A stretch of DNA of 64,000 nucleotides from Halobaculum sp. MBLA0143 (GTDB lineage: Archaea; Halobacteriota; Halobacteria; Halobacteriales; Haloferacaceae), in contig NZ_JBGKAC010000001.1 of the NCBI RefSeq assembly GCF_041361465.1, forward strand, positions 434,001 to 498,000, given 5' to 3'. Below the pieces are notes generated by a model. The model was not told the DNA's origin and made no database searches. It worked only from the letters and a program-made list of their open reading frames with translations. Below, piece after piece: positions 24,725 to 49,257 of this stretch. A program made the position numbers and the translations under genes. Position 1 is the stretch's first letter, and every line of letters begins with the position of its first letter.

Positions 24725-24797
24725 GCCGGTGTAGCTCAGCTGGCAGAGCGATTCCTTCGTAAGGAATAGGCCGAGGGTTCAAATCCCTCCACCGGCT
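24725..24797 (+). tRNA. tRNA-Thr (CGT)
   Basis: Cloverleaf: acceptor GCCGGTG with CACCGGC and discriminator T; D arm GCTC-AGCTGGCA-GAGC; anticodon stem ATTCC/GGAAT with loop TTCGTAA, so the anticodon is CGT (threonine ACG codons); T arm GAGGG-TTCAAAT-CCCTC. An upstream GATTAAGT (about 24687-24694) fits a TATA box. Its 3' end is duplicated 157 bp downstream at the border of the accessory island, showing this gene was an integration target and remained intact. Confidence 0.95.
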
Positions 24798-25459: not shown

Positions 25460-25906
25460 TCACCAGTCCAGCTGTAGTTCCGCGTCGAGGAACGCTTCCA
25501 CACTCCCGTACTCGTTCTCGACGACCTCGCACAGTTCGCGGTTGTCCCGGAGCCCGCCGCGGGTGATGTTCGCCGATCCGACGTAACGGAACTCCGGTGT
25601 GACAATCGCCTTCGCGTGAAGGTCATCGACGCTCTCGACACGGACGCGTTCGGGGAGCCGGCGCCGGACGTAATCGTTGTGTGACTCGCCCTCGCGCAGG
25701 TACACTTGGACTTCCGTCTCGACCACGGAGAGTGCAGTCGAGAGGCGTACTCGCCGCGGTAAACCACGCTCGGGGTCGGTCACTGGTAGCGAAATCCGCA
25801 CGTCGCTCAGCCACGGAGAGACGACGGCGACCCTCTCCGACCGCACCAGTGCGAATCCGAGGAGCGCTCCCAGCGCGTCAGAAGTCGAGGAAAATGCTCG
25901 TGTCAT
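25460..25906 (-). CDS. PLD-superfamily phosphodiesterase/nuclease (DpdK/DrmC-like)
   Basis: 148 residues with one HKD-type motif: HAKAIVTPEFRYVGSANITRGG (residues near 95-116), i.e. His-x-Lys followed by Gly-Ser-x-Asn; the usual Asp of HxKxxxxD is replaced. VAVVSPWLSD near residue 30 matches the first strand of PLD nucleases that dimerise to form one active site. ATG at 25906 overlaps the 3' end of the helicase gene by 29 bases, so both are co-translated. Small PLD proteins beside helicases occur as DpdK in dpd clusters and DrmC in DISARM. Predicted effector nuclease of the island. Confidence 0.75.
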   Translation of the reverse strand: MTRAFSSTSDALGALLGFALVRSERVAVVSPWLSDVRISLPVTDPERGLPRRVRLSTALSVVETEVQVYLREGESHNDYVRRRLPERVRVESVDDLHAKAIVTPEFRYVGSANITRGGLRDNRELCEVVENEYGSVEAFLDAELQLDW

Positions 25907-28900
25907 CGAACTCTGCCGCAGGTGTGGTTTCGAGGCCGAACATCGTCTCGACCGTCGCACTCGCGTCGACACTCCGGAGGAGGTGGTTGCGGAGTCGCTC
26001 GGCAACGACGTAGCTAAGCCCGTCGCCCTGCTCGACGCCAGCGATACAGCCCGACAGCTGAAGCGTCTCGACACAGTCGTCTACGTCCGGAGAGTGGAAC
26101 AGCGTCTCTAGTCGGTCGTGATCGACGCTGTCGTCGACGAGGGTGTCGACGGCCGACTCGGGGTACTCGCGCTCCCCGCCCAACTGGGCCTCGGCGACAG
26201 TGTGTTTGATCCTGAGCGCAGTCGTAGTCGACAGTGTCTCCGAGTCGCGCCCGAGCTGCCGACAGCGGTCGACCCCCGCCAACACCTCTTGTGTCACCTG
26301 GTCGACGACGTACTCGAACGGGGTGTCGAGCGTGGCGTCAACGGCGGCTCGAACGCCTGACTCGGCGATGTCTGGAGAGAGCCGGTCGACGAACGCTTCG
26401 CTGGTCCACAGCCGTTCGGCTTCGACCTGTGGGTTGTAGCCGACACGGAGAAGCGACTCCAGAACGCTCCCTGGGTCGCGGTCGATCTCCTCGAAGGCGA
26501 GGTCAACGACACCCTGGCCCCCTTCGGTCCGTTCGAACACGTACACCTCCCGTTCGGCTTCGTCGAACCCGTACAGGAGACTCGTCGTGTTGACACTGCT
26601 CACGTCGGCGACGAGCTGAAGCAGGAAGTGCGCGGCCGTGTGGTGGACCAGATACTCGAACGGTACGTCGGCGTCCTCGGGCTGGTACTGCTCTACGGCC
26701 GCTCGGACACCGTCACCGAGGCTGTCGAGGAACGGTCCGAGGTCGAACACGAGCCCCCGGGTGTTCAGGTGAAATCCCAGCGGGCGCTCCGGGCTCTCGA
26801 TCCGGCGTTCGTCTCGCTCGGATGCGAACCGGTACACCCACTCGCCGTCGACCTGTATCGGATCCGCGGGCGTGATTTCGAGTGTGACCCCTTCGAGCGT
26901 GACTGTGGGCGACACGTCCGCGAGTGCGAGGTTGCCGACCTGTTCGTCGACGTGCCGGTCTCGCAACTGGGTGGCGACTTCCGGTTCGGCGTGGATCTTT
27001 CCCTCTTCGTAAGTGTCGTGCCGGAGACAGTCTCCGTCGGTGTGGGTCAGACAGACCGGACAGTACTGGACGACGTTCTGCGCCTCGTCGCCGGCGAGAT
27101 CTTCGTACTCCGTGAGCCGGATCTCGTCGGGGACGAGGACACCGTCCTCCTGACGGCCGTCGACACTCTCGGTGAGCGTGAACTGGACGGTGCCGTCGTC
27201 GGTGACCTCCGTCCGCGGGAGGAAGGCACGAAGCGTGCCCTGGTCGGACCGGTACTCGCTGCGGTACGGAACGTACGTGCTGAGGATACTGTCGATCGAC
27301 TCCTGGCTACCGTCGACCGCGTTCTGGTCGCCGAAGACAGTGACGAACCGACCGGCAGAGCCGTAGTAGTCCGGTGGGACGAACCAGATCTCTTCGTCCA
27401 CCGACTCGCCGGCCGCTTCCCAAAACCGACTGACGTAGTAACTACACCGGAGAAGGTGTTTGACGCCGTACAAGCTCTTGTACGGCTGCTCGCTCAGGTC
27501 GATGTACGCTTCGAGTTCGTCGACTGCTTCACCGAGATAGAACAGTTGGGTCCGTTGGTCGAAGTACCGTTCCAATCGGCCGTCCGACTGGAGATCACGG
27601 AGCCGTTCGAGCACGTCGTCCACCTCGTCGAGTCGACCGGCGTTCACCCGGGGGACAGCCCCGTCGTCGGCACGGTCGGCCGCCCGTTGGATCGGACGCA
27701 TCCGCCCCGAGACACCGAACAGCCTGTCGACGACGCTCTCGAACTCGGAGACCGACTCGGTCGGTGTCCACGACCCGCGCGTCGCCGCCGCCGTCTCCTC
27801 TCGTAGCGCCTCGAGTTCGGCTTCGAGTTCCTCCGGGTCTCCCGGCGGTGACTCCCCGGCGCTCTCGATCCGGTCGACGTAGCCCTGAATCTGTCCCCGG
27901 AGGCTGTCGATCAGGTCTCGGAGCTCGTCGCGGACACGGAAGGTGTACTCTCGGACGGCCTCGCTTCCGCGGACGATCGTGTCGCCGTCCCGATCGAAGT
28001 GTTCGGTCAGCTCGGCGAGTTCGGCGTCGACCTCCTCGGCGGTCGCCTCGACGGCGGCCGATAGCCCCCCGGCGACGTGCTCCGACAGCGCTGGCTCGCC
28101 CGGCACGTCGACCGAGCGGTCGAACCACTCGTCGAAGAACGTCTGCGGGTCGGTCACGAACTCGTAGACGGCATCGTAGCCCAACTCCTCACGGAGGAAC
28201 CGGTCGAGAAACTCGAGGTGTTCGTCTCGCTTCGAATCGAACCCGCCGCGGTACTCCGCCTCGACGGCGCTCGCACACTCCGAGTACAGCCGCAACGTCG
28301 AGTGAATCCACTCGACGACGGGGTTGTCGATCTTCAGCGGAGTCCGAATGTCCGATCCGAGGAAGCGTTCGGCCCGGTAGAAGACGTTCGCGTCGTCGGT
28401 GAGGTTCGAGAGGAGCACGACGACGTGAGCGTCGTCTCCACGCTGACGCCCGGCGCGTCCGGCACGCTGGTTGAACGACGACAGGTCCCACGGTGTCCGG
28501 TACTGGGTGACGACGCCGATGTCACCGATGTCGATTCCGACCTCCAAGAACGAGGTGGAAAACAGGAGGTTGCTGTCGGCCGCCTCGCCGGCGTCGAACC
28601 CCTCGTCGGCGTACACGCGGGTCGTGTTCAACGGTCTGTCGACGAACGACCGGCCGAACGACGACGCGACCGCCGGCCAGTTCTCCTCTCCGTCACCGCC
28701 GAAGTGGTAGCGCCACAGCCCCCGGTCTGCGTCTGCCTTCCGGAACTGCGCGGACTTCTGGTTGATCTGGGAGATACTGTCGATGAAGGACAACACCTTA
28801 CTCTCGCTGCCGTCGGCGTCGGGGCCGGTGAGGGTGTGCCCGAGCAGCATCGACTGTTGGATCGCCATTGAGGAGACGGGGACATCCTCGGCCGCAGACA

Positions 28901-29993
28901 GGAAGTAGTAGTGCACACTGTCGTCGTGGCTGTCGTCGTAGTCGCTGTCCGGGGGTTCGACGGTCTCGATCCGGTCGTCGTCGTCGATGCCGAAGATCCG
29001 CCGACCGAACTGTTCGGGGTCGTCGATGGTCGCGCTGGAGCCGATCCACCGCAGCGGGCTCTCGGAGACGCTGTCGACGTTCCGGACGATCCGCGCCGCG
29101 TGAGCTCCCCGAAGCTGAGTGTAGAGGTGGACCTCGTCGAGCACAATCGTGTCGAGGTGGTCGACGAGATCGTAGTTGGGCTTCAGTGCGAAGCTCTCCA
29201 GCGATTCGAGCGTCGTCAGCAGGATGTCGGGACGACTGTCGTGGACGACATCACTGCGCGGGAGGACAACCTGACGGTGGTCGAACCGGTGGCTCGGGTC
29301 GGCCTCACACTGGAGTCGGTAGCCCCGACCGTCACGGGTCACTTCGAAGGCGTTGGGGTCGCCGTCGTCGCCACACCAACAGTTCGTGAGTGCGAGCCGG
29401 TCGGGGCCACCGGCGCTCCGCTCGACGTAGTCTCTCTGGCCCACCTTGTCGTTCCGGTACGGCTGGCCGCCGGTGTAGAGCCCGACGGAGAGGTCTGTCC
29501 CCGTCTGCTCGCCGATCCGGTGGACGTACTCCAGCACACGTTCGAGTTGGTCTTGCAGCAGTGCTCGCCGTGGGTAGACCATCGCCACGCTGTCCTGTCG
29601 ATCGTCGACGAGGTGCTGGAACAACGCCCCCAGGAACGCCTCCGTCTTGCCGAAGCCCGTCGGCGCCGACAGGACGGCCGCGGTCGACGACCCACGACGC
29701 TTCGCCTGGCGGTGGAGCCGATTCACCGTCTGCCAGCTGTCCACTTGGAAGTCGAGCGGATCGAACTCGAAGATGTCCGCCACCCGCTGGACGAACTCGT
29801 CGTCACCGTCGTACGGCGAAGAGGCACGCCGGTCCTGCCGCTCGTGTTCGTACTTCACCGCGTCCGCGACGTACGGACGATCACCCTGATCGTCCGAGTC
29901 GAACAGCTGCCGGTTGGACAACATCGCGTCCAGTAAATCGGCGACTCCGTCGGGGTACCGCGTCTCGTCGGAGGCTCGATCGAAGTAGCGCAC
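25878..29993 (-). CDS. Giant DEAD/DEAH-box helicase with DUF1998-like C-terminus (DpdJ-like)
   Basis: 1371 residues. Superfamily 2 helicase core: Walker A APTGFGKT (Lys 116), DEVH at 286-289, GSSATID (motif III), then helicase lobe 2 with LLFSTSFLEVGIDIGDIG and FNQRAGRAGRQRGD (motifs V and VI). Lobe 1 carries a cysteine cluster between motifs I and II. A long helical region (about 640-900) follows, then YCPVCLTHTDGDC (zinc-ribbon-like) and a DUF1998-like segment (HTAAHFLLQLVADVSSVNT, YVFERTEGGQGVV). GTG at 29993 is chosen since CCTTTTTTAC (complement, 30020-30029) is placed for a leaderless start. It is co-transcribed with the PLD nuclease. It resembles DpdJ; a DISARM DrmA/DrmB-type role is the alternative. 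Confidence 0.75.
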   Translation of the reverse strand: MRYFDRASDETRYPDGVADLLDAMLSNRQLFDSDDQGDRPYVADAVKYEHERQDRRASSPYDGDDEFVQRVADIFEFDPLDFQVDSWQTVNRLHRQAKRRGSSTAAVLSAPTGFGKTEAFLGALFQHLVDDRQDSVAMVYPRRALLQDQLERVLEYVHRIGEQTGTDLSVGLYTGGQPYRNDKVGQRDYVERSAGGPDRLALTNCWCGDDGDPNAFEVTRDGRGYRLQCEADPSHRFDHRQVVLPRSDVVHDSRPDILLTTLESLESFALKPNYDLVDHLDTIVLDEVHLYTQLRGAHAARIVRNVDSVSESPLRWIGSSATIDDPEQFGRRIFGIDDDDRIETVEPPDSDYDDSHDDSVHYYFLSAAEDVPVSSMAIQQSMLLGHTLTGPDADGSESKVLSFIDSISQINQKSAQFRKADADRGLWRYHFGGDGEENWPAVASSFGRSFVDRPLNTTRVYADEGFDAGEAADSNLLFSTSFLEVGIDIGDIGVVTQYRTPWDLSSFNQRAGRAGRQRGDDAHVVVLLSNLTDDANVFYRAERFLGSDIRTPLKIDNPVVEWIHSTLRLYSECASAVEAEYRGGFDSKRDEHLEFLDRFLREELGYDAVYEFVTDPQTFFDEWFDRSVDVPGEPALSEHVAGGLSAAVEATAEEVDAELAELTEHFDRDGDTIVRGSEAVREYTFRVRDELRDLIDSLRGQIQGYVDRIESAGESPPGDPEELEAELEALREETAAATRGSWTPTESVSEFESVVDRLFGVSGRMRPIQRAADRADDGAVPRVNAGRLDEVDDVLERLRDLQSDGRLERYFDQRTQLFYLGEAVDELEAYIDLSEQPYKSLYGVKHLLRCSYYVSRFWEAAGESVDEEIWFVPPDYYGSAGRFVTVFGDQNAVDGSQESIDSILSTYVPYRSEYRSDQGTLRAFLPRTEVTDDGTVQFTLTESVDGRQEDGVLVPDEIRLTEYEDLAGDEAQNVVQYCPVCLTHTDGDCLRHDTYEEGKIHAEPEVATQLRDRHVDEQVGNLALADVSPTVTLEGVTLEITPADPIQVDGEWVYRFASERDERRIESPERPLGFHLNTRGLVFDLGPFLDSLGDGVRAAVEQYQPEDADVPFEYLVHHTAAHFLLQLVADVSSVNTTSLLYGFDEAEREVYVFERTEGGQGVVDLAFEEIDRDPGSVLESLLRVGYNPQVEAERLWTSEAFVDRLSPDIAESGVRAAVDATLDTPFEYVVDQVTQEVLAGVDRCRQLGRDSETLSTTTALRIKHTVAEAQLGGEREYPESAVDTLVDDSVDHDRLETLFHSPDVDDCVETLQLSGCIAGVEQGDGLSYVVAERLRNHLLRSVDASATVETMFGLETTPAAEFDDTSIFLDF

Positions 29994-30181
29994 GTCGCCT
30001 CTCTGGAGGGTGAGAGGGCGTAAAAAAGGTCGGGTCCCGCCGAGTCTACCGGAGATCGCGCGGACCGACGGCGTTGTCACTATCCGCCGTCGCTGGCGTC
30101 GTGGTGGGAATCATCTGTCGTTGGGCGTGACTTTGAGTTTAGACGTAGCTCGCCGCGGGGCGAGCGTCGGTCGGTTCATCG

Positions 30182-31454: not shown

Positions 31455-31967
31455 GTGAACACGCTGCTCGTCCAATCCTGCTCTTCTCGGAAGACAGCAA
31501 CGACAGAGCCTCTCCCGGCGATAGAGCTGTACGACGGCTACTTCTACCGCATCCTGAAGAAGGCGCGCCGTGAGACGGATGAACTCCCGGTCGATATCCG
31601 GATTCTGTCTGCCGAACACGGACTACTCCACCCGGAGACGCCCATCGAGCCGTACGACCGAGAGATGGACGCCGAGCGCGCCGCCGAGTTACGCGAGTCC
31701 GTCGTCGCGACGCTCGCCGACCTCGCGGGCGACTACGACCGGGTGGTAATTGTCGGGGGCACACAATACCGCTCCGCGACCGAGGGGCTCGCGGCGGCGA
31801 CGGACACGCCGGTCCACTACGTTCGCGGCGACGGGATCGGGGAGATGGGGGGGAAGCTGAAGCGGTTCCTCCACGGTGACGACGCGGCAGTCGTTGACGA
31901 CACCTCGACGGACGACGATCCACGTCGAGCAGACGAGCAACGACCGTCGAGCTGCGCGGGGGACTGA
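31455..31967 (+). CDS. DUF6884-like protein (ArcS/YaaA-related fold), first gene of the TGT operon
   Basis: 170 residues. The pattern LLVQSCSSRKT...PAIELYDGYFYRILKKAR...DIRILSAEHGLLHPETPIEPYD is that of DUF6884 proteins: an N-terminal Cys-Ser-x-x-Lys strand, a 'LY.g.f' helix and 'SA.HGLl.p...i.pYd'. This resembles the Cys/Lys signature of the ArcS core domain, so it may act on the 7-deazaguanine base or on DNA. GTG at 31455 is fixed by a TATA box at the leaderless distance. The stop TGA overlaps the ATG of the TGT gene by one base, so it is coupled to a base-exchange enzyme. The C-terminal 40 residues are disordered and acidic. Confidence 0.65.
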   Translation: MNTLLVQSCSSRKTATTEPLPAIELYDGYFYRILKKARRETDELPVDIRILSAEHGLLHPETPIEPYDREMDAERAAELRESVVATLADLAGDYDRVVIVGGTQYRSATEGLAAATDTPVHYVRGDGIGEMGGKLKRFLHGDDAAVVDDTSTDDDPRRADEQRPSSCAGD

Positions 31968-33238
31968 TGTCGAACACGCGCACGCACGCGGACGGAGACG
32001 AGCGAGACGGAGACGAGCCACCGTTCGCGTTCACCGTCGAGGCGACCGCCGGCGACGCGCGAGCGGGACGGCTCCGCGTCCGCGACACGGAGCTTCCCAC
32101 CCCGGCGATGTTCCCGGTGGTCAACTTCTACGGCGGTGGTCGCCCGAGAAGCTTCTTCGGCGGGGGGATCTACCGAACCGTGAAGGAACTCGCCGTCGGT
32201 GTCGAGCGTGTCGACGGCGTCGCCGCGCCGGAGTACTTCGACGCTACGATGATGTCCGTCGCCTCGCTCACCGACTACGGAATCTCCGAAGACCTGTTCG
32301 AGACGTACCGCGACACGGAGCTGTTGGAGCGTTCGGAGTTCGAGTCGTTAGAGAGCCTGCTGTTCCTCGACTCGGGCGGGTTCAAGTTCCTCGGCGACGG
32401 CCAGTTGGAGGGGAACGGCTTCGCCGTCGAGATGGACCAGACGGCTGTGTACGAGATTCAACGTGATCTCGGCGGCGACGTGCTCGTCAACCTCGACCAC
32501 CCGATTGCACCGGACGACGACCACGCGACCCGCGTCGAGAAGGCCAGGAAGACCGCCGAGAACGTCGAGACGTTCCTGTCGCTGACGGCCGACAGCGACG
32601 CGGCGCTGTACCTCACTCTCCACGGCTACAACTATTCGATGATGGACGAGTTTTTGGAGACAGTCACGGATGTCGTCCCGGCGTCGGTGCTTCGGGAGGG
32701 GTTCGACGGCATCGCGCTCGGGAGCCTCGTTCCAAAGAAAGACGATCGCGAGGCGTTGATCCAAGCGGTGAGTGACTGCCGTGAAGTGCTCGCCGACTGG
32801 GGAATGCGCGACCGACCATTGCACGTCCTCGGAATCGGCAGCCGTGCTATCCCGCTCCTCGTCGGAATGGGCGTCGACAGCTTCGACTCGACGACGTACG
32901 TCCAGAACGCCATCAACGGGAAGTACCAACAGTCGTTGGTCGACACCGTCCCGCTGGACGACGCCGACTTCGACCGGTGCGACTGTCCGGTGTGTTCTTC
33001 CGACGTGCTCGTCTCGCGGATGCGTGGCGACGCCGAGTACAAGAAAGACGTGCTCGGACCCGTCGCCGTTCACAACCTGATCGTCCAGAAGCGCGACGTG
33101 GCGGCGCTCAGAGAGACCGTCGCGTCGGGCGAGACCGGGCAAGTAATACAGTACCTCGAAGATACACTCGGACACCACGAGACGATGAGGAAACACGCAC
33201 ACGCAGTCGTCAACCGTTCGTTGGGAGGGTACTTCTGA
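31967..33238 (+). CDS. TGT-family transglycosylase, DpdA-like (predicted DNA guanine to preQ0 exchange)
   Basis: 423 residues. The queuine/archaeosine tRNA-ribosyltransferase fold is clear: LFLDSGGFKF (general-acid Asp 135), substrate-pocket strands (LVNLDHPI, YLTLHGYNYS), GIALGSLVPKK, and GMGVDSFDSTTY, where Asp 307 of FDS aligns with the catalytic nucleophile. The zinc site is complete: Cys 338, Cys 340, Cys 343 (CDCPVC) and a His in AVHNL about 25 residues on. There is no PUA domain, and the protein is shorter than archaeal tRNA TGT, as in DpdA. Placed between a DUF6884-like gene and a GHKL ATPase gene (adjacent TGA-ATG) inside a helicase/nuclease island, it more likely acts on DNA than tRNA. 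Confidence 0.8.
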   Translation: MSNTRTHADGDERDGDEPPFAFTVEATAGDARAGRLRVRDTELPTPAMFPVVNFYGGGRPRSFFGGGIYRTVKELAVGVERVDGVAAPEYFDATMMSVASLTDYGISEDLFETYRDTELLERSEFESLESLLFLDSGGFKFLGDGQLEGNGFAVEMDQTAVYEIQRDLGGDVLVNLDHPIAPDDDHATRVEKARKTAENVETFLSLTADSDAALYLTLHGYNYSMMDEFLETVTDVVPASVLREGFDGIALGSLVPKKDDREALIQAVSDCREVLADWGMRDRPLHVLGIGSRAIPLLVGMGVDSFDSTTYVQNAINGKYQQSLVDTVPLDDADFDRCDCPVCSSDVLVSRMRGDAEYKKDVLGPVAVHNLIVQKRDVAALRETVASGETGQVIQYLEDTLGHHETMRKHAHAVVNRSLGGYF

Positions 33239-34771
33239 ATGCTCCGTGAACCGACAGTGAACGAGGTCAACGAGTTTCTGGAGATCGCCTCCGACTTCGA
33301 GGACCCGTTGGAGGTGATCCGGGAGTCGTTGTCGAACGCCTACGACGCCGAGGCGACGACGGTCCGGATCGCCATCGAGCACGCCGAGAACGGCTCCGAC
33401 ATCGTGGTCGCCGACGACGGCCACGGCATGGACGACCGCGACCTCGCGTCGTTCTTCGACCTCGGTAACTCCCGCAAAGAGGACAGTATCGGGTACAAAG
33501 GACACGGAACCAAGATTTTCTACAAGTCCGACCGGATCACAGTCGAGACGGTCCACGACGGGACGGAGCGACGCGCGGTCATGGACGACCCCTGGCGAAA
33601 GCTCAACGACCGTGTCCTCCCGGAGTACGAGGTGACGGAAGACGACACGGACCTCGACGAGATGTCGACTCGAATCCGGATCGAGAACTTCCGGTCTGGC
33701 CAGGGGTTCGACCCGTCGAAGCTCACCTACAACAAGATCGAACACTACCTCTACTGGAAGACAATCGTCGGGTCGACCGCACACCACTTCGGAGACGACC
33801 ACCGTCGGATGCAGGTCGTCGTCGACCTCGACGAGCGAATCGACGACACCCGAGACAGTCTCGACACCCGGACGGGGTTCGAGTTCCCGGACGAACAGCT
33901 CGACCCCGGCGACGGCGACCAGCCGGCGGCGTACATGTGCAAACACTACCCACCCCGGGAGCTGTCGGTCGAGTACGACGGCGGGGAGACGACGGTTCAG
34001 ATGGTCGGGATGGTCGGCGGGAAGGCGGCGCGAAACGAACTCCCGACCTACGGGAAACACTCCGCGCAGTTCGGCGTCTGGCTCGCCAAAGACCACATCA
34101 AAGTCGAACGGATCAACGACACCCTCGCGCACGACAACGAGTTCCTCCACTTCATGTTCGTCGCCAACTGCCAGGACATCGAACTGGCCGCCAACCGGGA
34201 GTCGATCCGGAACAAGGCGAGTCCGGTGTTCGCGGCCATCCGCGAGGAGGTCTCGTACTACATGTCGAAGGTCGCCAACGACCCCTGGTTCGAGACGTAC
34301 CTGGAGGCTCGAAAGCGTGGTCGGTACGAGCGCCGCGTCGACGACGAGGCCGGCGGCGTGTCCGAGCGTCGCGCGGCCGTCGCCGACCGTGGCGGCTTCT
34401 CACCGTCAAACCGCCCGGAGCTGCTGGTCGGCCTCCAGCGTGCTACGGCCCGCGACGACACTCTCGACGTGACCGTCGAAGACTTCGCTCCCGGCTCCGA
34501 GGTCAACGCGCTGCTCACACGCGACGGAACGCTCGAGAACGCCGCCGTCGCACACACCCTCACCGGGCTCCTCGACGACGGCGTGCCACTCGAACCGGTC
34601 GACGTGGTCGTCTGTTGGGAGCAGGGCGACCCGACGGAGCTCCGCGAGTGGGAACGGCGCGACTACTTCGGCGGCAGCCTCGCAGTCGACACCGACGCCG
34701 GACGGCTCACCTACGACTCCGACGGTCGCCACACAGTCGACGTGCTCGAACTCGCACCGTACTTCGAGTGA
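33239..34771 (+). CDS. GHKL (Hsp90/MORC-like) ATPase
   Basis: 510 residues. Bergerat ATP fold: RESLSNAYDAEA (N-box with Glu/Asn, residues about 28-40), DDGHGMDDRDL (D-x-G-x-G, about 59-69) and GYKGHGTKIFYKSD (glycine-rich lid, about 83-96). The middle half is a transducer-like alpha/beta region (FGVWLAKDHIKVERINDT, ANCQDIELAANRESIRNK), typical of MORC/Hsp90-like GHKL proteins in bacterial conflict systems. The C-terminal 120 residues are a separate domain with no match I can name. It begins at the base after the TGT stop codon. Role: ATP-driven clamp or DNA remodelling linked to the modification or defence; inference. Confidence 0.8.
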   Translation: MLREPTVNEVNEFLEIASDFEDPLEVIRESLSNAYDAEATTVRIAIEHAENGSDIVVADDGHGMDDRDLASFFDLGNSRKEDSIGYKGHGTKIFYKSDRITVETVHDGTERRAVMDDPWRKLNDRVLPEYEVTEDDTDLDEMSTRIRIENFRSGQGFDPSKLTYNKIEHYLYWKTIVGSTAHHFGDDHRRMQVVVDLDERIDDTRDSLDTRTGFEFPDEQLDPGDGDQPAAYMCKHYPPRELSVEYDGGETTVQMVGMVGGKAARNELPTYGKHSAQFGVWLAKDHIKVERINDTLAHDNEFLHFMFVANCQDIELAANRESIRNKASPVFAAIREEVSYYMSKVANDPWFETYLEARKRGRYERRVDDEAGGVSERRAAVADRGGFSPSNRPELLVGLQRATARDDTLDVTVEDFAPGSEVNALLTRDGTLENAAVAHTLTGLLDDGVPLEPVDVVVCWEQGDPTELREWERRDYFGGSLAVDTDAGRLTYDSDGRHTVDVLELAPYFE

Positions 34772-34814: not shown

Positions 34815-35498
34815 TCACGACAGCGACAGTTCGACGTACGCCGACAGGTCCGACTCGGCAAGCAGCTCTCGTTCTTCTGCCGACAGATCACCGTAGGTGA
34901 GCCGTTCGTCGTCGAGCAGTCGCTGGACGACCGGCCACACCTCCGTGCCGCGGTACGGACCGAACAGTTCGTCCTGCAGCTCCTGTGAGTGGCCACGGAA
35001 CTCGTCGCCCACCGTCGCTGCGTCGTCGAGCGCAGCCTCGAAGTCGTCCGCGCCGACCTCAACGTTCGCCCGCCAGTTCCAGTCGTCCAACAGAGTCTCG
35101 ATGGCCGCCAGCCGCTCGGGGTCGACCCGCTCCACCCGTTCGTTCAGCCGTTGCATCGCTCGGACGCGATTCAACGCGTCGAGCCGCTTCGGCTGCACCT
35201 CGTTTTCCAGTCGTCGCTTCGCGGCAGACACCTCCGTCGACACGTCGTCGAGTTTCTCGTCTAGGCTCGCGTACGAACCCTCGTCGAGCAGTCCTCGAGC
35301 GTCGTCGACCGCCGCCTGCGCCTCCGGTTCGATTTCGAACTCGGCGTCGAACAACGCTGCCGCGAACGCACGCTGGAGGAGTGTCTCTTCCATCTCCACC
35401 GCGAGGGCCGACAACGACTCCGCCAGGTCTCGTCGCCGATACCGCTCCTGTGTCTGTCTGAGCTGTTCCGCGAAGCCACCCGTCGTATCACTCGACAT
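34815..35498 (-). CDS. Coiled-coil protein of the island (DpdI-like position)
   Basis: 227 residues, highly acidic and almost wholly helical, with a long heptad-rich stretch (LDEKLDDVSTEVSAAKRRLENEV, ALNRVRAMQRLNERVERV) that predicts coiled coil. No catalytic motif seen. Its ATG overlaps the end of the ATPase gene upstream by 11 bases, so the two are translationally coupled. In bacterial dpd clusters dpdG, dpdH and dpdI are consecutive; the size, order and coupling here suggest the DpdI role, but sequence homology cannot be proven by eye. It converges with the GHKL gene. Confidence 0.6.
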   Translation of the reverse strand: MSSDTTGGFAEQLRQTQERYRRRDLAESLSALAVEMEETLLQRAFAAALFDAEFEIEPEAQAAVDDARGLLDEGSYASLDEKLDDVSTEVSAAKRRLENEVQPKRLDALNRVRAMQRLNERVERVDPERLAAIETLLDDWNWRANVEVGADDFEAALDDAATVGDEFRGHSQELQDELFGPYRGTEVWPVVQRLLDDERLTYGDLSAEERELLAESDLSAYVELSLS

Positions 35499-38475
35499 AG
35501 TAGTTGCTCACCTCCGAGAACCGGCCCCCGAGACTGTCGGTCTCACTGCCCGGGTCGAGCGTGACGTTCTGGAACCGCTCGTACGGCTCGCTCCGCCGAA
35601 CGTACACGTCCAACAGCCGCACCCGCAGTTGGTCTAACGGCGACCGACTCTCCGCGAGTTCGAGCGCCCCGTGTGCCGCGTCGATGGTGTCCTCGAACGC
35701 CTCGTCGTCGACCCGGGCGAACTTCGCCAGCGACTCCCGCACCTGCGGGCTGACACTGTCGTACGTTCGGAGCGTCTGGTGGATCTCTCTCACCTCGCCG
35801 AGGTCGATCACCCCGAGTTCGTTGACGACCGTCTCGATTGCCGTAGGGTTACCGCCCGTCTCGATCAGCGCGTCGACACGCTGCCGGAGGTCGTACGCGC
35901 CGTTGGCGACCGATCGGAGCTTCTCGTCGCCGATTCGCACGTCCGTGCTGATGTTCTGGATGTACCCTCGACCGAGGTACTTCAGCACCTCGTGCGGGGG
36001 ACTGTTCGACAGTCGACTACGAAGCTCCGGCAGATCTAACGCCGAGCCGCCGACGCCGAGTAGTTCACCCAGCAGGTCTTCGAGCACACCGGCGTCTTCG
36101 ACCGCCGACTTCAGCTCTCGGAACTCCTCGACCGACAGGCTCTGTTCACACCAGTCGACGACACGGGGGTGGATCTCGAAGTCGTCGGTCTCACCGTACC
36201 GCTCGGCGAACGTCTCCGCGGTCACCGGTCGGGTGGGGTCTTCGAACACCATCGCCGCCGCGTACGTCGAGACGGCGAAGTCCACGAGACCGTAGTCTGC
36301 GTGCCGCTTGTACAGTACGTCGTCGTCTTCGAGGTACGTCGCCCTGAGCGTCCGCCGCCAGGCGTCGGCGTACCCCGTCAGCTGCGTTCCCATCCGGTCG
36401 AACAGTTCGTCGCGCCGCGGCGTCCCCGTTCCTTCCTCACACCGAACACCGTACGCCAGGAGTCGACGGAGCGCAGACGACCGGAAGTCGTCCGGGTCGA
36501 CCTCGATCTGGTACGGTTCCGGCGCGTCGGTCGTGTTGCCGAAGACGAACGGGTCCTGTTGGTTGCTGACGTTGAACGTCAGGTTCGTCCCCTCGTACAG
36601 CGCGAATCCGTCGGTGAGGTACTTCAGCGCGTCACGCAGCCCGGCACGGAGGTAGATCCCCGTCTGGCTGTTCTCGCCCGGTCGTTCCTTCCAGGCACCG
36701 ACGAGCGGCTTGTGTTCGTCGATCTTCTCTTGGACGAGGTCCCGTGTCGTTCCGCCGGTCCCGCTGCCGCCACCACCAGTGCCAGTGCCGCCGCCACCTG
36801 TGCCAGTGCCGCCGCCACCTGTGCCAGTGCCGCCGCCACCCGTGCCAGTGCCGCCGGTGGGGGGCGACCCCCCGCCACCGCTCCCGGAACGAATCCGAAG
36901 TGTTCCGTCGTCGCTGTCGCGGCCCCCTTCGACGTGTTCCGGGAGTTCGTCGACATCGAAGCCGAACGCCATCGGGAACCGGTAGTCGACGTGTATCCAC
37001 CCGTCGTTCTCCTCGCCGTACCACCGGAACACCTCCGCGAGCTCCGGGTGTGCCTCCTCTACGTCGTCGTCGACGAGCAACGGCTGTTTCAGCGTCTTCA
37101 ACGCGCCGGCGCTCGACGGCGCGTCGACGCGACCCTTGTAGTAGTCCTCCAACACCTCGAACACGATCATCACGATCTCTCGTGGCGACTGCTGGCTCTC
37201 GGGCAGTCCGGCGTACACCCGTTCGACGAACCGCTCGTGGAACGGGAACAGATCGCGGAACGACTCGTCACACAGCCCACACGTCGCACAGGTGGTCCCG
37301 TCGGGTGCCGGGCGCAGACGCTCGACGGCCCCGTCCGCGTCGCGGTCGTACGAGACGCTCCCGTCGAGCGACTTGAAGTACCCCAGGTACGGCCTGACGA
37401 AGTCGACGACCGACTCCTCGTCTAGGAACAACACGCTGTTGGAGTCGGGGTCGTTCGTCTGGAAGAACTCGAAGCGGTCCTCTGCAGTCCGCGTGTGGAG
37501 TACTTCCGTAGAGTCGCGAGTGCCGGCGACGACGAAGTCCCAGTTGTCGCCGTCCTTGTCACGCTCCATGTAGTTGCGGAGCTGACGCGCCTCCATCGCG
37601 GTGATGGCGAAGTCCTCGAACACGATCACCGGCCGGGTGTCGTCGAAGGCAGCCCCGACACGTTGGAGCACCTCGTTCAACGACGCCGTGCCGTACCGGT
37701 CACGGATCTCTCGCCACAACTCCGTGTTCAGCGCGTCGATGGCAGTCTCCTCGTCTGGGGCCTCCCCGTCTGTGAACACCTCGAAACAGTCGCGCTGCCG
37801 GTATGCACCCTCGGAGACGAACTTCACCTCCGTCCCGTACTGCTCGCGCTCAACGAGCTGTTGGAGCTGACTCCGGACGTGATCCTGAATGCCGTCCTGT
37901 TGCTCGTTCGTGTAGTCGACGTCGAACCCGCGGTCCGCGAGGTTCAACAACGCGCCCGAGGACGCGTACCGCGCGACGGCGTCGGGCGTCTCGCGGATGT
38001 CCGCCTCCAACTCCTCGAACTCTGTCTTCCCCGGCAGTTCCTCACCGACGTGTTCCTGGTAGAAGTCGGGAATCCGGTCGGTCAGCAACGACATCAGGTC
38101 GTCGTCTTTGTCGACGTGGAGAATCGGCCGGTCGTCGTCGTCGAGCCGGTGGGCGAGGTACGCACACAGCTCCGACTTCCCGGTGCCGACCTCTCCTTCG
38201 ATGACGACGGCGAAGTTACCCCTGCGACTCTCGGAGAACAGTTCGTACACCTCGTCTTCGGAGACGACCGGCGCACTCGACACGTTCGCGCCAGTCGACC
38301 GGTAGACGTCGATCTCTCGGTGCGTGAAGTCGAACAGGTCCCGATCTTCCGACCGTACGGCCGCGACCTTGCTGAACAGTCGCCGGAGCGTCTCCTCTTC
38401 GACGTTGTCGAAGTGTGGACACCGGTCGTACTCCCAGGCGTCCGACTCCGCCGCCGGCGTCGTGTTCTGACTCAC
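35488..38475 (-). CDS. Large P-loop ATPase (DpdH-like)
   Basis: 995 residues. Walker A GEVGTGKSE (Lys 100) with the preceding strand NFAVVIE; Walker B PVIVFEDF near residue 283-290 and a sensor-like VVAGTRDS, consistent with AAA/STAND ATPases. CATCGLCDESF near residue 397 is a possible zinc knuckle. A Gly/Thr-rich hinge of 7-residue repeats (about 540-572) separates the ATPase half from a C-terminal helical half with several winged-helix-like segments. Its start overlaps the upstream gene by four bases (ATGA) and its end overlaps the downstream coiled-coil gene. Size and order match DpdH; PglY/BrxC-type BREX ATPases are the alternative. Predicted restriction motor. Confidence 0.7.
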   Translation of the reverse strand: MSQNTTPAAESDAWEYDRCPHFDNVEEETLRRLFSKVAAVRSEDRDLFDFTHREIDVYRSTGANVSSAPVVSEDEVYELFSESRRGNFAVVIEGEVGTGKSELCAYLAHRLDDDDRPILHVDKDDDLMSLLTDRIPDFYQEHVGEELPGKTEFEELEADIRETPDAVARYASSGALLNLADRGFDVDYTNEQQDGIQDHVRSQLQQLVEREQYGTEVKFVSEGAYRQRDCFEVFTDGEAPDEETAIDALNTELWREIRDRYGTASLNEVLQRVGAAFDDTRPVIVFEDFAITAMEARQLRNYMERDKDGDNWDFVVAGTRDSTEVLHTRTAEDRFEFFQTNDPDSNSVLFLDEESVVDFVRPYLGYFKSLDGSVSYDRDADGAVERLRPAPDGTTCATCGLCDESFRDLFPFHERFVERVYAGLPESQQSPREIVMIVFEVLEDYYKGRVDAPSSAGALKTLKQPLLVDDDVEEAHPELAEVFRWYGEENDGWIHVDYRFPMAFGFDVDELPEHVEGGRDSDDGTLRIRSGSGGGGSPPTGGTGTGGGGTGTGGGGTGTGGGGTGTGGGGSGTGGTTRDLVQEKIDEHKPLVGAWKERPGENSQTGIYLRAGLRDALKYLTDGFALYEGTNLTFNVSNQQDPFVFGNTTDAPEPYQIEVDPDDFRSSALRRLLAYGVRCEEGTGTPRRDELFDRMGTQLTGYADAWRRTLRATYLEDDDVLYKRHADYGLVDFAVSTYAAAMVFEDPTRPVTAETFAERYGETDDFEIHPRVVDWCEQSLSVEEFRELKSAVEDAGVLEDLLGELLGVGGSALDLPELRSRLSNSPPHEVLKYLGRGYIQNISTDVRIGDEKLRSVANGAYDLRQRVDALIETGGNPTAIETVVNELGVIDLGEVREIHQTLRTYDSVSPQVRESLAKFARVDDEAFEDTIDAAHGALELAESRSPLDQLRVRLLDVYVRRSEPYERFQNVTLDPGSETDSLGGRFSEVSNYYVE
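36761..36862 (-). repeat. 21-bp in-frame minisatellite in the ATPase gene
   Basis: Units of 21 bases beginning GTGCCAGTGCCGCCGCCACC start at 36779, 36800, 36821 and 36842; the first three are full copies (the third with one change at its end), the fourth diverges in its last third, and a degenerate partial unit precedes them. Each encodes Gly-Gly-Thr-Gly-Thr-Gly-Gly on the complement, making a flexible linker. Copy-number change by slippage would keep the reading frame and alter linker length. Confidence 0.85.
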
Positions 38476-39296
38476 GACAGCACCTCGATCGTGTTCGCCT
38501 CGGTGTCGATTCCGGACCGTCGCGGCACGTCGTCGAGCCCGACTGCACCCGCGTCACCCCGTTCGACGAGTCGAATCGTGCCGTCACGCACGAGTTCGAA
38601 CAACAGCCGGGCCAGCGGCGCTGGCACGGTCCCCTCCTGGAGCGTGACCGGCAGGAGGTTCGTCTGGAGCCACTCGAAGTACTCCCGAATCCCGAGGTAG
38701 TCGTCGCCGTCGGCCGCGAGCCTGACCGACGCCTCGATCAACTCCGGGGTCGGTCTGACGGCGTGCTCCCGGCCGGTCGTCTTGTACACTAACCCGAGGA
38801 AGTTCGCCTGCCGCGACCAGTTGACGAACTTCGGGTCGTTCAGCGTGATCGACCCCTGTGAGGACTGCGGATCGTAGCTCAGTTCGCTCCGGTACCAGTC
38901 GTCGATTCTGTCGTACAGCCCCGTGTCGTTGTTCTCGAAGTACTGGACATCGTGTTCGAGCATGTACTTGTAGATCAGGAGCACGACTGACTGCTTTCCC
39001 CAGTCGGGGCCCGTACACTCCCGGGCGAGGTTGTGGAGGATCGTCAACCGGAAGTCACGGTCGTCGTCACCGGTGTCGAAAGCGTACTCCACCGTGTGGA
39101 ATTCGTAGTCTTCCTTGCCAATCATCCGATACTGTCGCAGGCCGTTCAGGCCGTCGCTCAGCCGTTCTTCGTCGAACCCCAGTTCCGCTTCGAGTTCGTC
39201 GCGGGCTGTCACTCCACGATCGATTGCGTCGTAGAGGGGTTTGATCGGCTCCGGCGTCTGGAGCGTGTTGAGAACGTACCCCTCACTCGTACTCAT
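38472..39296 (-). CDS. Winged-helix-like island protein (DpdG-like position)
   Basis: 274 residues, no catalytic motif. The N-terminus (EPIKPLYDAIDRGVTARDELEAELGFDEERLSDGLNGLRQYRMIGKE) has the helix-turn-helix plus wing rhythm of a winged-helix domain; the remainder is mixed alpha with aromatic-rich segments (YKYMLEHDVQYF, IREYFEWLQTNLLPV). ATG at 39296 is supported by a TATA-like ATTAATATAC on the complement (39313-39322). It starts the three-gene unit ending at 34815 and overlaps the ATPase gene by ATGA. Order and size suggest DpdG; homology is unproven. Confidence 0.6.
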   Translation of the reverse strand: MSTSEGYVLNTLQTPEPIKPLYDAIDRGVTARDELEAELGFDEERLSDGLNGLRQYRMIGKEDYEFHTVEYAFDTGDDDRDFRLTILHNLARECTGPDWGKQSVVLLIYKYMLEHDVQYFENNDTGLYDRIDDWYRSELSYDPQSSQGSITLNDPKFVNWSRQANFLGLVYKTTGREHAVRPTPELIEASVRLAADGDDYLGIREYFEWLQTNLLPVTLQEGTVPAPLARLLFELVRDGTIRLVERGDAGAVGLDDVPRRSGIDTEANTIEVLS

Positions 39297-39473
39297 ACCC
39301 ACATATCGGCCACGTATATTAATGTAGCTTACTGTCGAGCAGCGACAGTACACCCGACGACCGTCGCGCCCCCGAGGAACACCGAAAAGCGGGGGTCACG
39401 ACGGAGCCACATCGACCACCCGATTGTGCCTGGACCCCCGCGGTCGACGACTGTCACCAGCTACGATCGAGAC

Positions 39474-40418
39474 TCACACGACTGCCGTGAGCGACCGCGT
39501 CAGCCACCCGTGGAGTCGCGCGTCGACCGGCGACGCGTCGGCTCTCAGTCGATCCGCGGCGTCTCGGCCCCGCTTGAGCGCCGGCATCTGGTTCGCGTGT
39601 GCCGGATCGAACGTCTTGCCGTCTCTCCCGACCCGCCTGTTGTACTCGGCGACGATCTCGCGTGCAGTGCCACGGTCCAGCTCCACCCGACGGCGGAGCC
39701 ACCGCGAAACGTCGTCGACGGCGTCGTCCGAGTCCAGCGGCGCGGTACCGTACTCCTCCGGCCGCGAGAACAATGCCGCGAACGTGTCGTACAATGGGAG
39801 GTACGGCGCGTCCGGCAGCGCCTCGAACAGTTCGACGGTGGTGCGGGGCGGCTCGCCTTCCACGAGCTCGTACAGCAGCGCGTTGTCCTGGACGAAGAGG
39901 TTCCGGGTGTCGGACAGCGGGAGGTGGTGGCCGAACCGCTCGTACCGACGCTCGAACGCGTCGAACACGCGGTCGTAGTCGCCGATCCGGTCTGCAAACG
40001 GCTCCTGATCCAACGGACGCTGTCCGCCGACGGGGGTGAACCGCCGGTCGTCCGTCACGACGACGAGCGACCCCTCGTGGGTGTACCGCTCGATTACTGC
40101 CGAGACGGAGTGGGTCGTCTCCGTCTCGTAGTGTCCGTTCGTCACGATACACAGTTCCTCTGGTTGGTCGTCGTCCGGCCCGAGCTCCGAGAGGTGTCGG
40201 TAGGCGAAGTCGAGGTAGTCGTACTGCTCGTACCCCCAAATCTGGCGCCACGTCGTCGGGTACGTCACGTCGACGACACCGAGGTACCGCAACGCCGGAA
40301 CGGCACGCAACAGCCGCCACCGACTGTTGTCCACGGGGTCGTAGACGACCGACACCCGACTCTCGCACAGCCGGGCGAGAACGGGCTCCTCCGGTGACGG
40401 GTCGGACGTGCGGTTCAT
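39474..40418 (-). CDS. Island protein of unknown function coupled to the helicase
   Basis: 314 residues, acidic with many aromatic and Arg residues. Visible pieces: VVYDPVDNSRWRLLRAVPALRYLGVVDVTYPTTWRQIWGYEQYDY, GSLVVVTDDRRF and NLFVQDNALLYELV. The alternation of hydrophobic strands and helices suggests an alpha/beta domain at the N-terminus and an all-helical C-terminus, but I recognise no family. Its ATG overlaps the stop of the upstream helicase (ATGA), so it is expected to work with it. In bacterial systems a helicase partner of this size may guide DNA loading; that is speculation. Confidence 0.6.
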   Translation of the reverse strand: MNRTSDPSPEEPVLARLCESRVSVVYDPVDNSRWRLLRAVPALRYLGVVDVTYPTTWRQIWGYEQYDYLDFAYRHLSELGPDDDQPEELCIVTNGHYETETTHSVSAVIERYTHEGSLVVVTDDRRFTPVGGQRPLDQEPFADRIGDYDRVFDAFERRYERFGHHLPLSDTRNLFVQDNALLYELVEGEPPRTTVELFEALPDAPYLPLYDTFAALFSRPEEYGTAPLDSDDAVDDVSRWLRRRVELDRGTAREIVAEYNRRVGRDGKTFDPAHANQMPALKRGRDAADRLRADASPVDARLHGWLTRSLTAVV

Positions 40419-45181: not shown

Positions 45182-45325
45182 TCTCGTTCGAGTCGCGGCG
45201 CCCAACCGCGGGCACCGTCGTCTGTGATCCTCGTTAGTTCTCGGCACGTAAGAAACCCACCGGACGACGAACACTCTCGGACGACCTCCGTGTCTGACAG
45301 TCCGACGCCTATCGACGACACTCGG

Positions 45326-48333: not shown

Positions 48334-49257
48334 GTGGCCACACCGACAGACGTGTCGCGTTCACCGCTGTCGGAGTCGCTCACCGTCGACGAGACCCTGA
48401 CCCAGGCGGAAGTCGAGTACCGGTTCGACACCAACTTCGGCTACCAGTTCAACGGGATCACATACCGCAACCCCGACGCGGGGCGGTACGTGATCCTCCT
48501 GGCGAACGAGGGTGCCGTCTACGACGACCGCCTCGGCGGCGGCGAGACGTTCACCTACGTCGGCGAGGGGGTGCCGGAGAAGGGGGATCAGGAGGAGACG
48601 CACCGGAACCGGGCGTTGTTGGACGCCGTCGACGAGGCGTTTCCGATCTACCTCTTCACGAGCACGGACGGCGAGGATCGGTACCGCTACGAGGGGCTCG
48701 TCGAGGTGACGGACGCGGCGTACGTCGACGACGGTGACCGGATGGTGTACCGCTTCCAGATGCGTCGTCTCGGCGTCGCGTCGTGGAGTGAGTACACCGA
48801 CGGGGTGACCGAGATCGAACGGCAGTCGAGGGAGCCGCCGACACTGAACGCGGACCGAGAGACGAGTCGGGGGGAGCGAGTCACGCGCAGCGCCGCGTTC
48901 GCGCGGCGCGTGAAGGAGCTGTACGACGACCGTTGTGTCGCCTGCGGCGCGCGACGACGTTCGCCCGAGGGCACACCGGAGGTCGAGGCCGCACACGTCT
49001 ACCCCGTCGCGGAGGGCGGGCCGGACGACCTCCGGAACGGGATCGCGCTGTGTCGCACCCACCACTGGGCGTTCGACCACGGGTGGTTCGCGGTCGACGA
49101 CGACCGACGGATGCTCGTCCGCGAGACGGATCGAGAGCCGCCCGCGACGGTCGCCCGCCTGGCCGGCGACAGGCTCCGCGAACCGTCGGATCCGGCGTTC
49201 GCGCCACACCCCGACTACCTCGCCGCACACCGAGCGTATCGGGGGTTCGAGCGCTGA
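48334..49257 (+). CDS. SRA/YDG-like domain plus HNH endonuclease (modification-dependent, McrA-like)
   Basis: 307 residues. The N-terminal two-thirds match the SRA/YDG base-flipping fold: AVYDDRLGGGETFTYVGEG, GDQEETHRNRALLDA, YRYEGLVEVTDAAYVDDGDRMVYRFQMRRL. The C-terminal part is an HNH nuclease: CVACGARR (zinc Cys pair), EAAHVYPVAEGGPDDLRNGIALCRTHHWAFD (His, Asn, His). Such SRA-HNH proteins are type IV-like enzymes that cut DNA carrying modified bases. GTG at 48334 is the chosen start; there is no ATG nearby. It lies directly right of the modification island and may be a companion or an independent defence gene. Confidence 0.8.
   Translation: MATPTDVSRSPLSESLTVDETLTQAEVEYRFDTNFGYQFNGITYRNPDAGRYVILLANEGAVYDDRLGGGETFTYVGEGVPEKGDQEETHRNRALLDAVDEAFPIYLFTSTDGEDRYRYEGLVEVTDAAYVDDGDRMVYRFQMRRLGVASWSEYTDGVTEIERQSREPPTLNADRETSRGERVTRSAAFARRVKELYDDRCVACGARRRSPEGTPEVEAAHVYPVAEGGPDDLRNGIALCRTHHWAFDHGWFAVDDDRRMLVRETDREPPATVARLAGDRLREPSDPAFAPHPDYLAAHRAYRGFER

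What the first reader, a model, noticed from the sequence alone, without database searches (positions are those of the whole stretch)
31967..33238. Two diverged transglycosylases, only one with the TGT zinc site
The 31967 protein keeps CxCxxC...H (Cys 338/340/343) and the nucleophile Asp 307; the 45326 protein keeps both catalytic Asp positions (105, 310) but has lost CxCxxC. Eukaryotic TGT works as a dimer of unequal subunits, so these may form a heterodimer, or may act at different sequence sites or on different bases.
Basis: partly seen in the sequence, partly recalled or inferred. Interest (0 to 1): 0.75.

Follow-up and report, generated by a model that had tools for sequence, protein, structure and literature searches.

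The report
Paired DNA-base-swapping enzymes in archaeal defence island
A salt-loving archaeon carries an antiviral island with two sister enzymes that each look able to swap guanine in DNA for a modified base, each with its own finishing partner; the missing zinc site that drew attention is a loss seen only in this one genome, not a sign of unequal halves of one enzyme.

Summary
The 31967 protein ("A") has Asp135, Asp307 and Cys338/340/343-His369; the 45326 protein ("B") has Asp105 and Asp310 and no zinc cysteines. The zinc asymmetry is not a property of the pair. Of 28 haloarchaeal B proteins, 13 keep CxCxxC, 13 have C-x4-C-x2-C, one has two cysteines, and only the window's copy has none; all 14 bacterial B proteins keep CxCxxC. 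The eukaryotic analogy is inverted: QTRT2 keeps zinc and loses the aspartates.

A and B are sister clades, separate from tRNA TGT, ArcTGT, ArcS and DpdA. Each has its own YaaA-fold partner: A a DpdC-like DUF6884 gene directly upstream (30 of 30 loci), B a fused ArcS-type DUF5591 domain. They co-occur strongly (34 of 40 carriers), yet each is found alone: A in five genomes, B in one haloarchaeon and in bacteria. With DpdJ-, DpdK- and DpdH-like genes and a YprA/MZB helicase, the locus fits the published haloarchaeal BRIGADE type I system, a Dpd-like 7-deazaguanine DNA modification and restriction island.

Best reading: two catalytically intact DNA transglycosylase modules in one island, not an obligate QTRT1/QTRT2-like heterodimer. 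A facultative A:B complex is not excluded.

The parts
31967..33238 (+). Protein A: TGT-fold transglycosylase, 423 aa; D135, D307, C338/C340/C343, H369
   Evidence: Pfam TGT 1.5e-22; NCBIfam DpdA only 32.7 bits against a cut-off of 200
31455..31967 (+). DUF6884 (YaaA-fold, DpdC-like) partner gene, directly upstream of A in 30 of 30 loci; motifs CxxxK and LSAxxG kept
   Evidence: DUF6884 3.8e-16; PADLOC DpdC 1.5e-6; PMC11701544; PMC11888242 links DUF6884 with dpdC
33239..34771 (+). GHKL (Hsp90/MutL-type) ATPase, third gene of the conserved triad
   Evidence: HATPase_c_3 2.3e-15
45326..47311 (-). Protein B: TGT domain with D105 and D310 plus C-terminal ArcS-type DUF5591 domain (PCSxxKPYxxS); zinc cysteines replaced by Gly/Ser/Tyr in this copy only
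25878..30080 (-). DpdJ-like DEAD/YprA-type helicase, 1400 aa
   Evidence: PADLOC DpdJ 1.2e-49; DEAD 5.7e-18
25460..26074 (-). PLD-family nuclease, DpdK-like, 204 aa; its open frame overlaps the end of the DpdJ-like gene, so the true start may lie further in
   Evidence: PLDc_2 3.9e-6; DpdK 1.7e-11
35488..38475 (-). AAA/STAND-like NTPase, weak DpdH similarity, 995 aa
   Evidence: DpdH 3.7e-5; kept in relatives
38472..39353 (-). Conserved unknown gene next to the DpdH-like gene
   Evidence: no Pfam or PADLOC match; kept beside the DpdH-like gene in relatives
39474..40418 (-). Unknown gene between the DpdH-like cluster and the YprA helicase
   Evidence: no family match
40415..45274 (-). YprA-family helicase with MZB (MrfA zinc-binding) domain, Druantia/DISARM-like, 1619 aa
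   Evidence: DruE 3.4e-47, DrmA 1.7e-16; MZB 4.9e-10
24725..24797 (+). tRNA-Thr at the low edge of the island, a possible insertion site; no second copy of its 3' end was found

Best explanation
The island is a haloarchaeal Dpd-like DNA modification and restriction system of the kind named BRIGADE type I. It contains two sister transglycosylase modules. Module 1 is DUF6884 + protein A + GHKL ATPase; module 2 is protein B, a TGT domain fused to an ArcS-type DUF5591 domain. In each module the TGT domain most likely exchanges guanine in DNA for preQ0, which the cell already makes for its tRNA, and the YaaA-fold partner then changes the nitrile group: DpdC-like for module 1, ArcS-like for module 2. 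The marks label self DNA, and the DpdJ/DpdK/DpdH-like and YprA proteins attack unmarked DNA. A and B are two complete, self-sufficient modules that probably act at different sites or leave different final bases; they are not the catalytic and accessory halves of one QTRT1/QTRT2-type enzyme. Shown by sequence: gene content, conserved active-site residues, phylogeny, co-occurrence and separate occurrence. Inferred: DNA as substrate, preQ0 as donor, the chemistry of each partner, and the division of labour.
For: Both aspartates and the guanine-binding Asp (Z. mobilis D156) are kept in every A and B examined. A and B are sister clades (96/93) apart from DpdA, ArcTGT, ArcS and tRNA Tgt; most share a Lys after DSGGF and, with one exception in A, a His at the Q203 position. 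DUF6884-A-GHKL is conserved in 30 of 30 loci. B's DUF5591 domain and the DUF6884 protein are homologous (hhalign 93.5%, E=2.3e-7), and DUF6884 also matches the domain fused to cyanobacterial and haloarchaeal DpdA (93.9% and 95.3%; Pfam DUF6884 in Picosynechococcus DpdA), so a TGT with a YaaA-fold partner is a recurring unit. Each module exists alone: A in five genomes, all of which carry a second DUF6884 gene and no B; B in one haloarchaeon and in cyanobacteria, Poribacteria and Chloroflexota with no A, DUF6884 or GHKL detected nearby, and as the only non-tRNA TGT in 7 of 11 bacterial genomes. Restriction-type neighbours: DpdJ 1.2e-49, DpdK 1.7e-11, DpdH 3.7e-5, DruE 3.4e-47. preQ0 genes QueC and QueD lie elsewhere in the genome. 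BRIGADE description: PMC12458937.
Against: A and B usually travel together (34 of 40 carriers) and their distance matrices correlate (Mantel r=0.77, 0 of 2000 permutations), which also fits a complex. The A-only genomes all belong to one family and may reflect a single loss. In 13 plasmid dpdA loci a second TGT occurs exactly where DpdB-type DGQHR genes are absent, which could mean that the second TGT stands in for an insertion partner.
Confidence: 0.58

Rival explanations
1. A and B form a heterodimer: after duplication of a homodimeric ancestor, one subunit binds and positions DNA and the other exchanges the base.
For: A and B are sister paralogues, co-occur in 34 of 40 carriers and show correlated divergence. 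TGTs are dimers (PMC6165067), and in dpdA loci a second TGT appears where the accessory DpdB is missing.
Against: Each occurs without the other. Both keep complete catalytic residues, whereas QTRT2 lost them. The zinc asymmetry is private to the window. A's distances follow the neighbouring GHKL gene more closely (r=0.92) than B (r=0.77).
Confidence: 0.22
2. Sequential pathway: A inserts preQ0 into DNA and B is an ArcS-like enzyme whose DUF5591 domain converts it to an archaeosine-like base, its TGT domain serving only to bind the modified site.
For: B carries the ArcS catalytic domain with the PCSxxKPY motif; T. kodakarensis ArcS adds lysine to preQ0 (PMC11298593, abstract); a phage with an ArcS homologue has dG+ and dPreQ0 in its DNA (PMC6884629).
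Against: B's TGT domain keeps all catalytic and base-pocket residues, while the genome's own ArcS has lost pocket ones (D156 to Pro, Q203 to Asp). In bacteria B is often the only non-tRNA TGT, so it must insert the base itself. A already has a DpdC-like partner.
Confidence: 0.14
3. One or both are ordinary or moonlighting tRNA-modifying TGT/ArcS enzymes.
For: Same Pfam family; best solved-structure match is archaeosine TGT.
Against: Scores far below the NCBIfam equivalog cut-offs for TgtA, Tgt and ArcS; the genome has canonical ArcTGT and ArcS; no PUA domain matched; embedded in a restriction-type island that is patchily distributed (39 of 392 genomes).
Confidence: 0.03

Closest known systems
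BRIGADE type I (Bell et al. 2025 preprint, PMC12458937)
   Same: Halophilic archaeon; one ARMADA/Druantia-like and one Dpd-branch helicase; PLD nuclease; predicted 7-deazaguanine genes
   Different: The readable main text does not mention TGT proteins by name, two of them, or their DUF6884/DUF5591 partners; the supplement could not be read
Bacterial Dpd system (dpdA-K)
   Same: TGT-fold enzyme, DUF6884/DpdC-like gene, DpdJ, DpdK and DpdH-like genes
   Different: Two non-DpdA TGTs instead of one DpdA; no DpdB (DGQHR); DSGG instead of DpdA's DCGA; QueC and QueD lie outside the island
ArcS (archaeosine synthase)
   Same: TGT-like domain followed by DUF5591 with PCSxxKPY motif (B only)
   Different: B keeps the guanine-pocket residues that this genome's ArcS has lost; no PUA domain matched; 98.7 bits against an ArcS cut-off of 440
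Eukaryotic TGT, QTRT1/QTRT2
   Same: Two unequal TGT-fold paralogues in one cell
   Different: There one subunit is catalytically dead and both keep zinc; here both keep the aspartates and zinc loss is private to one copy
DpdA plus short second TGT pairs (Picosynechococcus, Nostoc, Paenibacillus, haloarchaeal plasmids)
   Same: Two TGTs in one Dpd-like locus without DpdB
   Different: Those pair a true DpdA with a 307-344 aa TGT; here A and B are sisters and neither is DpdA

Membership tests
BRIGADE type I | ARMADA/Druantia-like YprA helicase | tested here: met
   40415-45274: DruE 3.4e-47, MZB 4.9e-10; position in the YprA tree not tested
BRIGADE type I | Second YprA helicase of the Dpd branch | tested here: met
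   25878-30080: DpdJ 1.2e-49; tree position not tested
BRIGADE type I | PLD or PD-(D/E)xK nuclease nearby | tested here: met
   25460-26074: PLDc_2 3.9e-6, DpdK 1.7e-11
BRIGADE type I | 7-deazaguanine gene cluster | tested here: met
   Two TGTs, DUF6884 and DUF5591; QueC and QueD lie outside the island
BRIGADE type I | Halophilic archaeal host | tested here: met
   Close homologues all haloarchaeal
BRIGADE type I | Antiviral activity and DNA base modification | not testable with these tools
   needs experiment
DpdA (NCBIfam NF041059 equivalog) | Score above the curated cut-off of 200 bits | tested here: not met
   A 32.7 bits; B no match
DpdA | Falls in the DpdA clade; DCGA motif | tested here: not met
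   Separate clade; A and B have DSGG, the seven DpdA compared have DCGA
ArcS (NCBIfam NF040592) | Score above 440 bits | tested here: not met
   B 98.7 bits
ArcS | DUF5591 with PCSxxKPY motif | tested here: met
   P521 C522 S523 K526 P527 Y528 S531 invariant in 28 of 28
ArcS | C-terminal PUA domain | tested here: not met
   Pfam finds only TGT and DUF5591 in B
tRNA TGT (TgtA, Tgt) | Scores above equivalog cut-offs (350, 306.75) | tested here: not met
   A 102.5 and 41.2 bits; B 92 and 44 bits
QTRT1/QTRT2-type heterodimer | One subunit lacks catalytic aspartates, both keep zinc | tested here: not met
   Both keep the aspartates; reference PMC6165067
QTRT1/QTRT2-type heterodimer | Physical association of the two proteins | not testable with these tools
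TGT superfamily | Pfam TGT above cut-off with DSGG and nucleophile Asp | tested here: met

The most novel reading that the evidence does not exclude
Dpd-like systems come in two designs, DpdA with a DpdB helper or two transglycosylases. In the A/B design one archaeal genome writes two different 7-deazaguanine marks into its DNA, one finished by a DpdC-like and one by an ArcS-like enzyme, so that self-recognition depends on a double mark that includes an archaeosine-type DNA base.
Probability: 0.27. Interest if true: 0.78.

Novelty: new member of a known kind. Interest (0 to 1): 0.5.

Why it matters
If both modules are active, a cellular archaeal genome would carry two enzyme lines that write 7-deazaguanines into DNA, one of them probably archaeosine-like, a base first known from archaeal tRNA and later measured in the DNA of phages and a halovirus (PMC6884629). 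It would make testable why Dpd-like loci hold either DpdB or a second transglycosylase, and which partner decides the final base. It also shows that a zinc-site difference read from one genome can mislead: the wider family keeps the site.

Tried and rejected
Zinc asymmetry as a mark of unequal subunits: rejected after the B family was aligned. B as an ArcS orthologue: rejected. A as a DpdA orthologue: rejected. Viral origin: no A or B in IMG/VR or in the phage records. Frameshift or indel as the cause of the lost cysteines: not seen, three in-frame replacements. Direct repeat of the tRNA-Thr 3' end at the far side of the island: none found. The original Dpd papers (PMC4801273, PMC6207457, PMC10164549) are not held, so statements on DpdB and DpdC rest on later papers. 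Mirror-tree correlation was computed but says little about contact, since all linked genes correlate.

Full report
OBSERVATION. The ORF at 31967-33238 (+) encodes 423 aa and matches Pfam TGT (1.5e-22). Its start overlaps the stop of a DUF6884 gene by one base and the next gene begins right after its stop. It has D135 in a DSGG motif, D307, C338, C340, C343 and H369, all invariant in 30 homologues. The ORF at 45326-47311 (-) encodes 661 aa, a TGT domain (1e-22) followed by DUF5591 (3.6e-17). It has D105, D310 and H403, invariant in 28 homologues, and no cysteine in the zinc region. I call the two proteins A and B.

THE ZINC SITE. In 28 haloarchaeal B proteins, 13 keep CxCxxC, 13 have C-x4-C-x2-C, one has two cysteines and only the window copy has none. 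All 14 bacterial B proteins keep CxCxxC. The two B proteins of a Haladaptatus plasmid have CxCxxC and C-x4-C-x2-C. In the window the three positions read Gly GGA, Ser AGC and Tyr TAC, in frame. This is a private loss in one lineage, not a feature of the pair. In the eukaryotic enzyme the non-catalytic QTRT2 keeps zinc and has lost the aspartates (PMC6165067), so the analogy runs the wrong way.

WHAT A AND B ARE. A maximum-likelihood tree of 67 TGT domains puts all A in one clade (100/100), all haloarchaeal B with bacterial B in another (100/99), and the two as sisters (96/93); DpdA, ArcTGT, ArcS, tRNA Tgt and the short second TGTs fall outside (some branches there are long and unsure). Most A and B share a lysine after DSGGF and, with one exception in A, a histidine at the Q203 position. 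Neither reaches the NCBIfam cut-off for DpdA, TgtA, Tgt or ArcS. The genome has its own ArcTGT at C1:2040263 and ArcS at C1:2043133; that ArcS has lost guanine-pocket residues that B keeps.

PARTNERS. In 30 of 30 loci the order is DUF6884, A, GHKL ATPase. DUF6884 is a YaaA-like fold with CxxxK and LSAxxG motifs (PMC11701544), both kept here, and is the domain reported for dpdC (PMC11888242); the window protein has a weak PADLOC DpdC match (1.5e-6). B's DUF5591 domain matches ArcS (hhalign 97.8%, E=8.7e-13) and the DUF6884 family (93.5%, E=2.3e-7); DUF6884 in turn matches domains fused to cyanobacterial and haloarchaeal DpdA. So several separate TGT lines come with a YaaA-fold partner: as a neighbouring gene (A), C-terminal (B), or fused to DpdA at either end. 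This is the strongest hint of function: insert a 7-deazaguanine, then change its side group.

TOGETHER AND APART. In 392 genomes of the order, A is in 39, B in 35, both in 34, A alone in 5 and B alone in 1; Fisher p=1.7e-42 without correction for relatedness. The five A-only genomes are of one family and all carry a second DUF6884 gene just upstream of the triad and no B. The B-only haloarchaeon has a DpdJ-like gene and no A, DUF6884 or GHKL within the stretches read. In cyanobacteria, Poribacteria and Chloroflexota, B-type proteins stand without A, DUF6884 or GHKL detected nearby, twice followed by a DpdJ-like helicase, and B is the only non-tRNA TGT in 7 of 11 of these genomes. An obligate A:B enzyme is therefore unlikely; a facultative complex is not excluded.

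THE ISLAND. Around the pair are a DpdJ-like helicase (1.2e-49), a DpdK-like PLD nuclease (1.7e-11), a weak DpdH match (3.7e-5) and a YprA/MZB helicase (DruE 3.4e-47). The stretch begins beside a tRNA-Thr and has lower G+C (about 0.61-0.65) than most of its flanks (about 0.67-0.72, with one dip to 0.62 at 51-54 kb). A genome of the same genus lacks both A and B. Bell et al. (PMC12458937) named such haloarchaeal systems BRIGADE; type I has one ARMADA-like and one Dpd-branch YprA helicase, usually a PLD or PD-(D/E)xK nuclease, and a predicted 7-deazaguanine cluster. The locus meets each of these as far as I could test. The main text names no TGT, so whether the pair was noticed there is unknown; its supplement was not readable.

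A WIDER PATTERN. Among plasmid dpdA loci read here, nine hold a second short TGT and no DGQHR (DpdB/DndB family) gene, four hold DGQHR and no second TGT, and one isolated dpdA has neither. No DndB-family gene was found in the window's genome or in eight other haloarchaeal genomes tested. The loci are not independent and the sample is small, but it suggests that a second transglycosylase and DpdB are alternatives. This is the best argument left for a partnership between two TGTs and is why I keep the heterodimer at 0.22.

MECHANISM. Most likely each module exchanges guanine in DNA for preQ0, available from the host's tRNA pathway (QueC and QueD), and its YaaA-fold partner finishes the base; the helicase and nuclease genes act against unmarked DNA. 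Shown: gene content, residues, phylogeny, distribution. Inferred: substrate, donor, chemistry, defence.

VERDICT. The locus is a member of a recently described defence class, with a pair of sister transglycosylases, each with its own finishing domain, that I did not find described in what I could read.

Noticed in passing
plasmid loci L104, L105, L197-L208: In dpdA loci a second short TGT and a DGQHR (DpdB/DndB) gene look mutually exclusive: nine with the first only, four with the second only, one with neither.
   Followed up: partly
L102:26731-28695 and L102:29409-31430 (Haladaptatus sp. YSMS36 plasmid): One locus with the A triad and two different B-type proteins, three TGTs in all; one B has CxCxxC, the other C-x4-C-x2-C.
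   Followed up: partly
L088:8340-8777, L089, L090, L187, L188: All five A-only genomes carry a second DUF6884 gene directly upstream of the DUF6884-A-GHKL triad and lack B.
   Followed up: yes
window 48334-49257 (+): SRA-HNH protein (HNH_2 1.5e-13, SAD_SRA 1.2e-8), type IV restriction-like, at the far edge of the island.
   Followed up: no
window 24725-24797: tRNA-Thr at the low edge of the island, where G+C drops; no repeat of its 3' end found further on.
   Followed up: partly
L105:706-2781 and L104:3702-6611: DUF6884 is fused N-terminally to DpdA in Picosynechococcus, and a related domain C-terminally in the Haloarcula DpdA.
   Followed up: yes
L105:5791-6714 and L199:14169-15116: The short second TGTs of Picosynechococcus and Nostoc lack the zinc cysteines altogether but keep both aspartates.
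   Followed up: partly
L128, L134: Bacterial B-type TGT genes followed by a DpdJ-like helicase with no other Dpd gene detected by the queries used, a possible minimal system.
   Followed up: no
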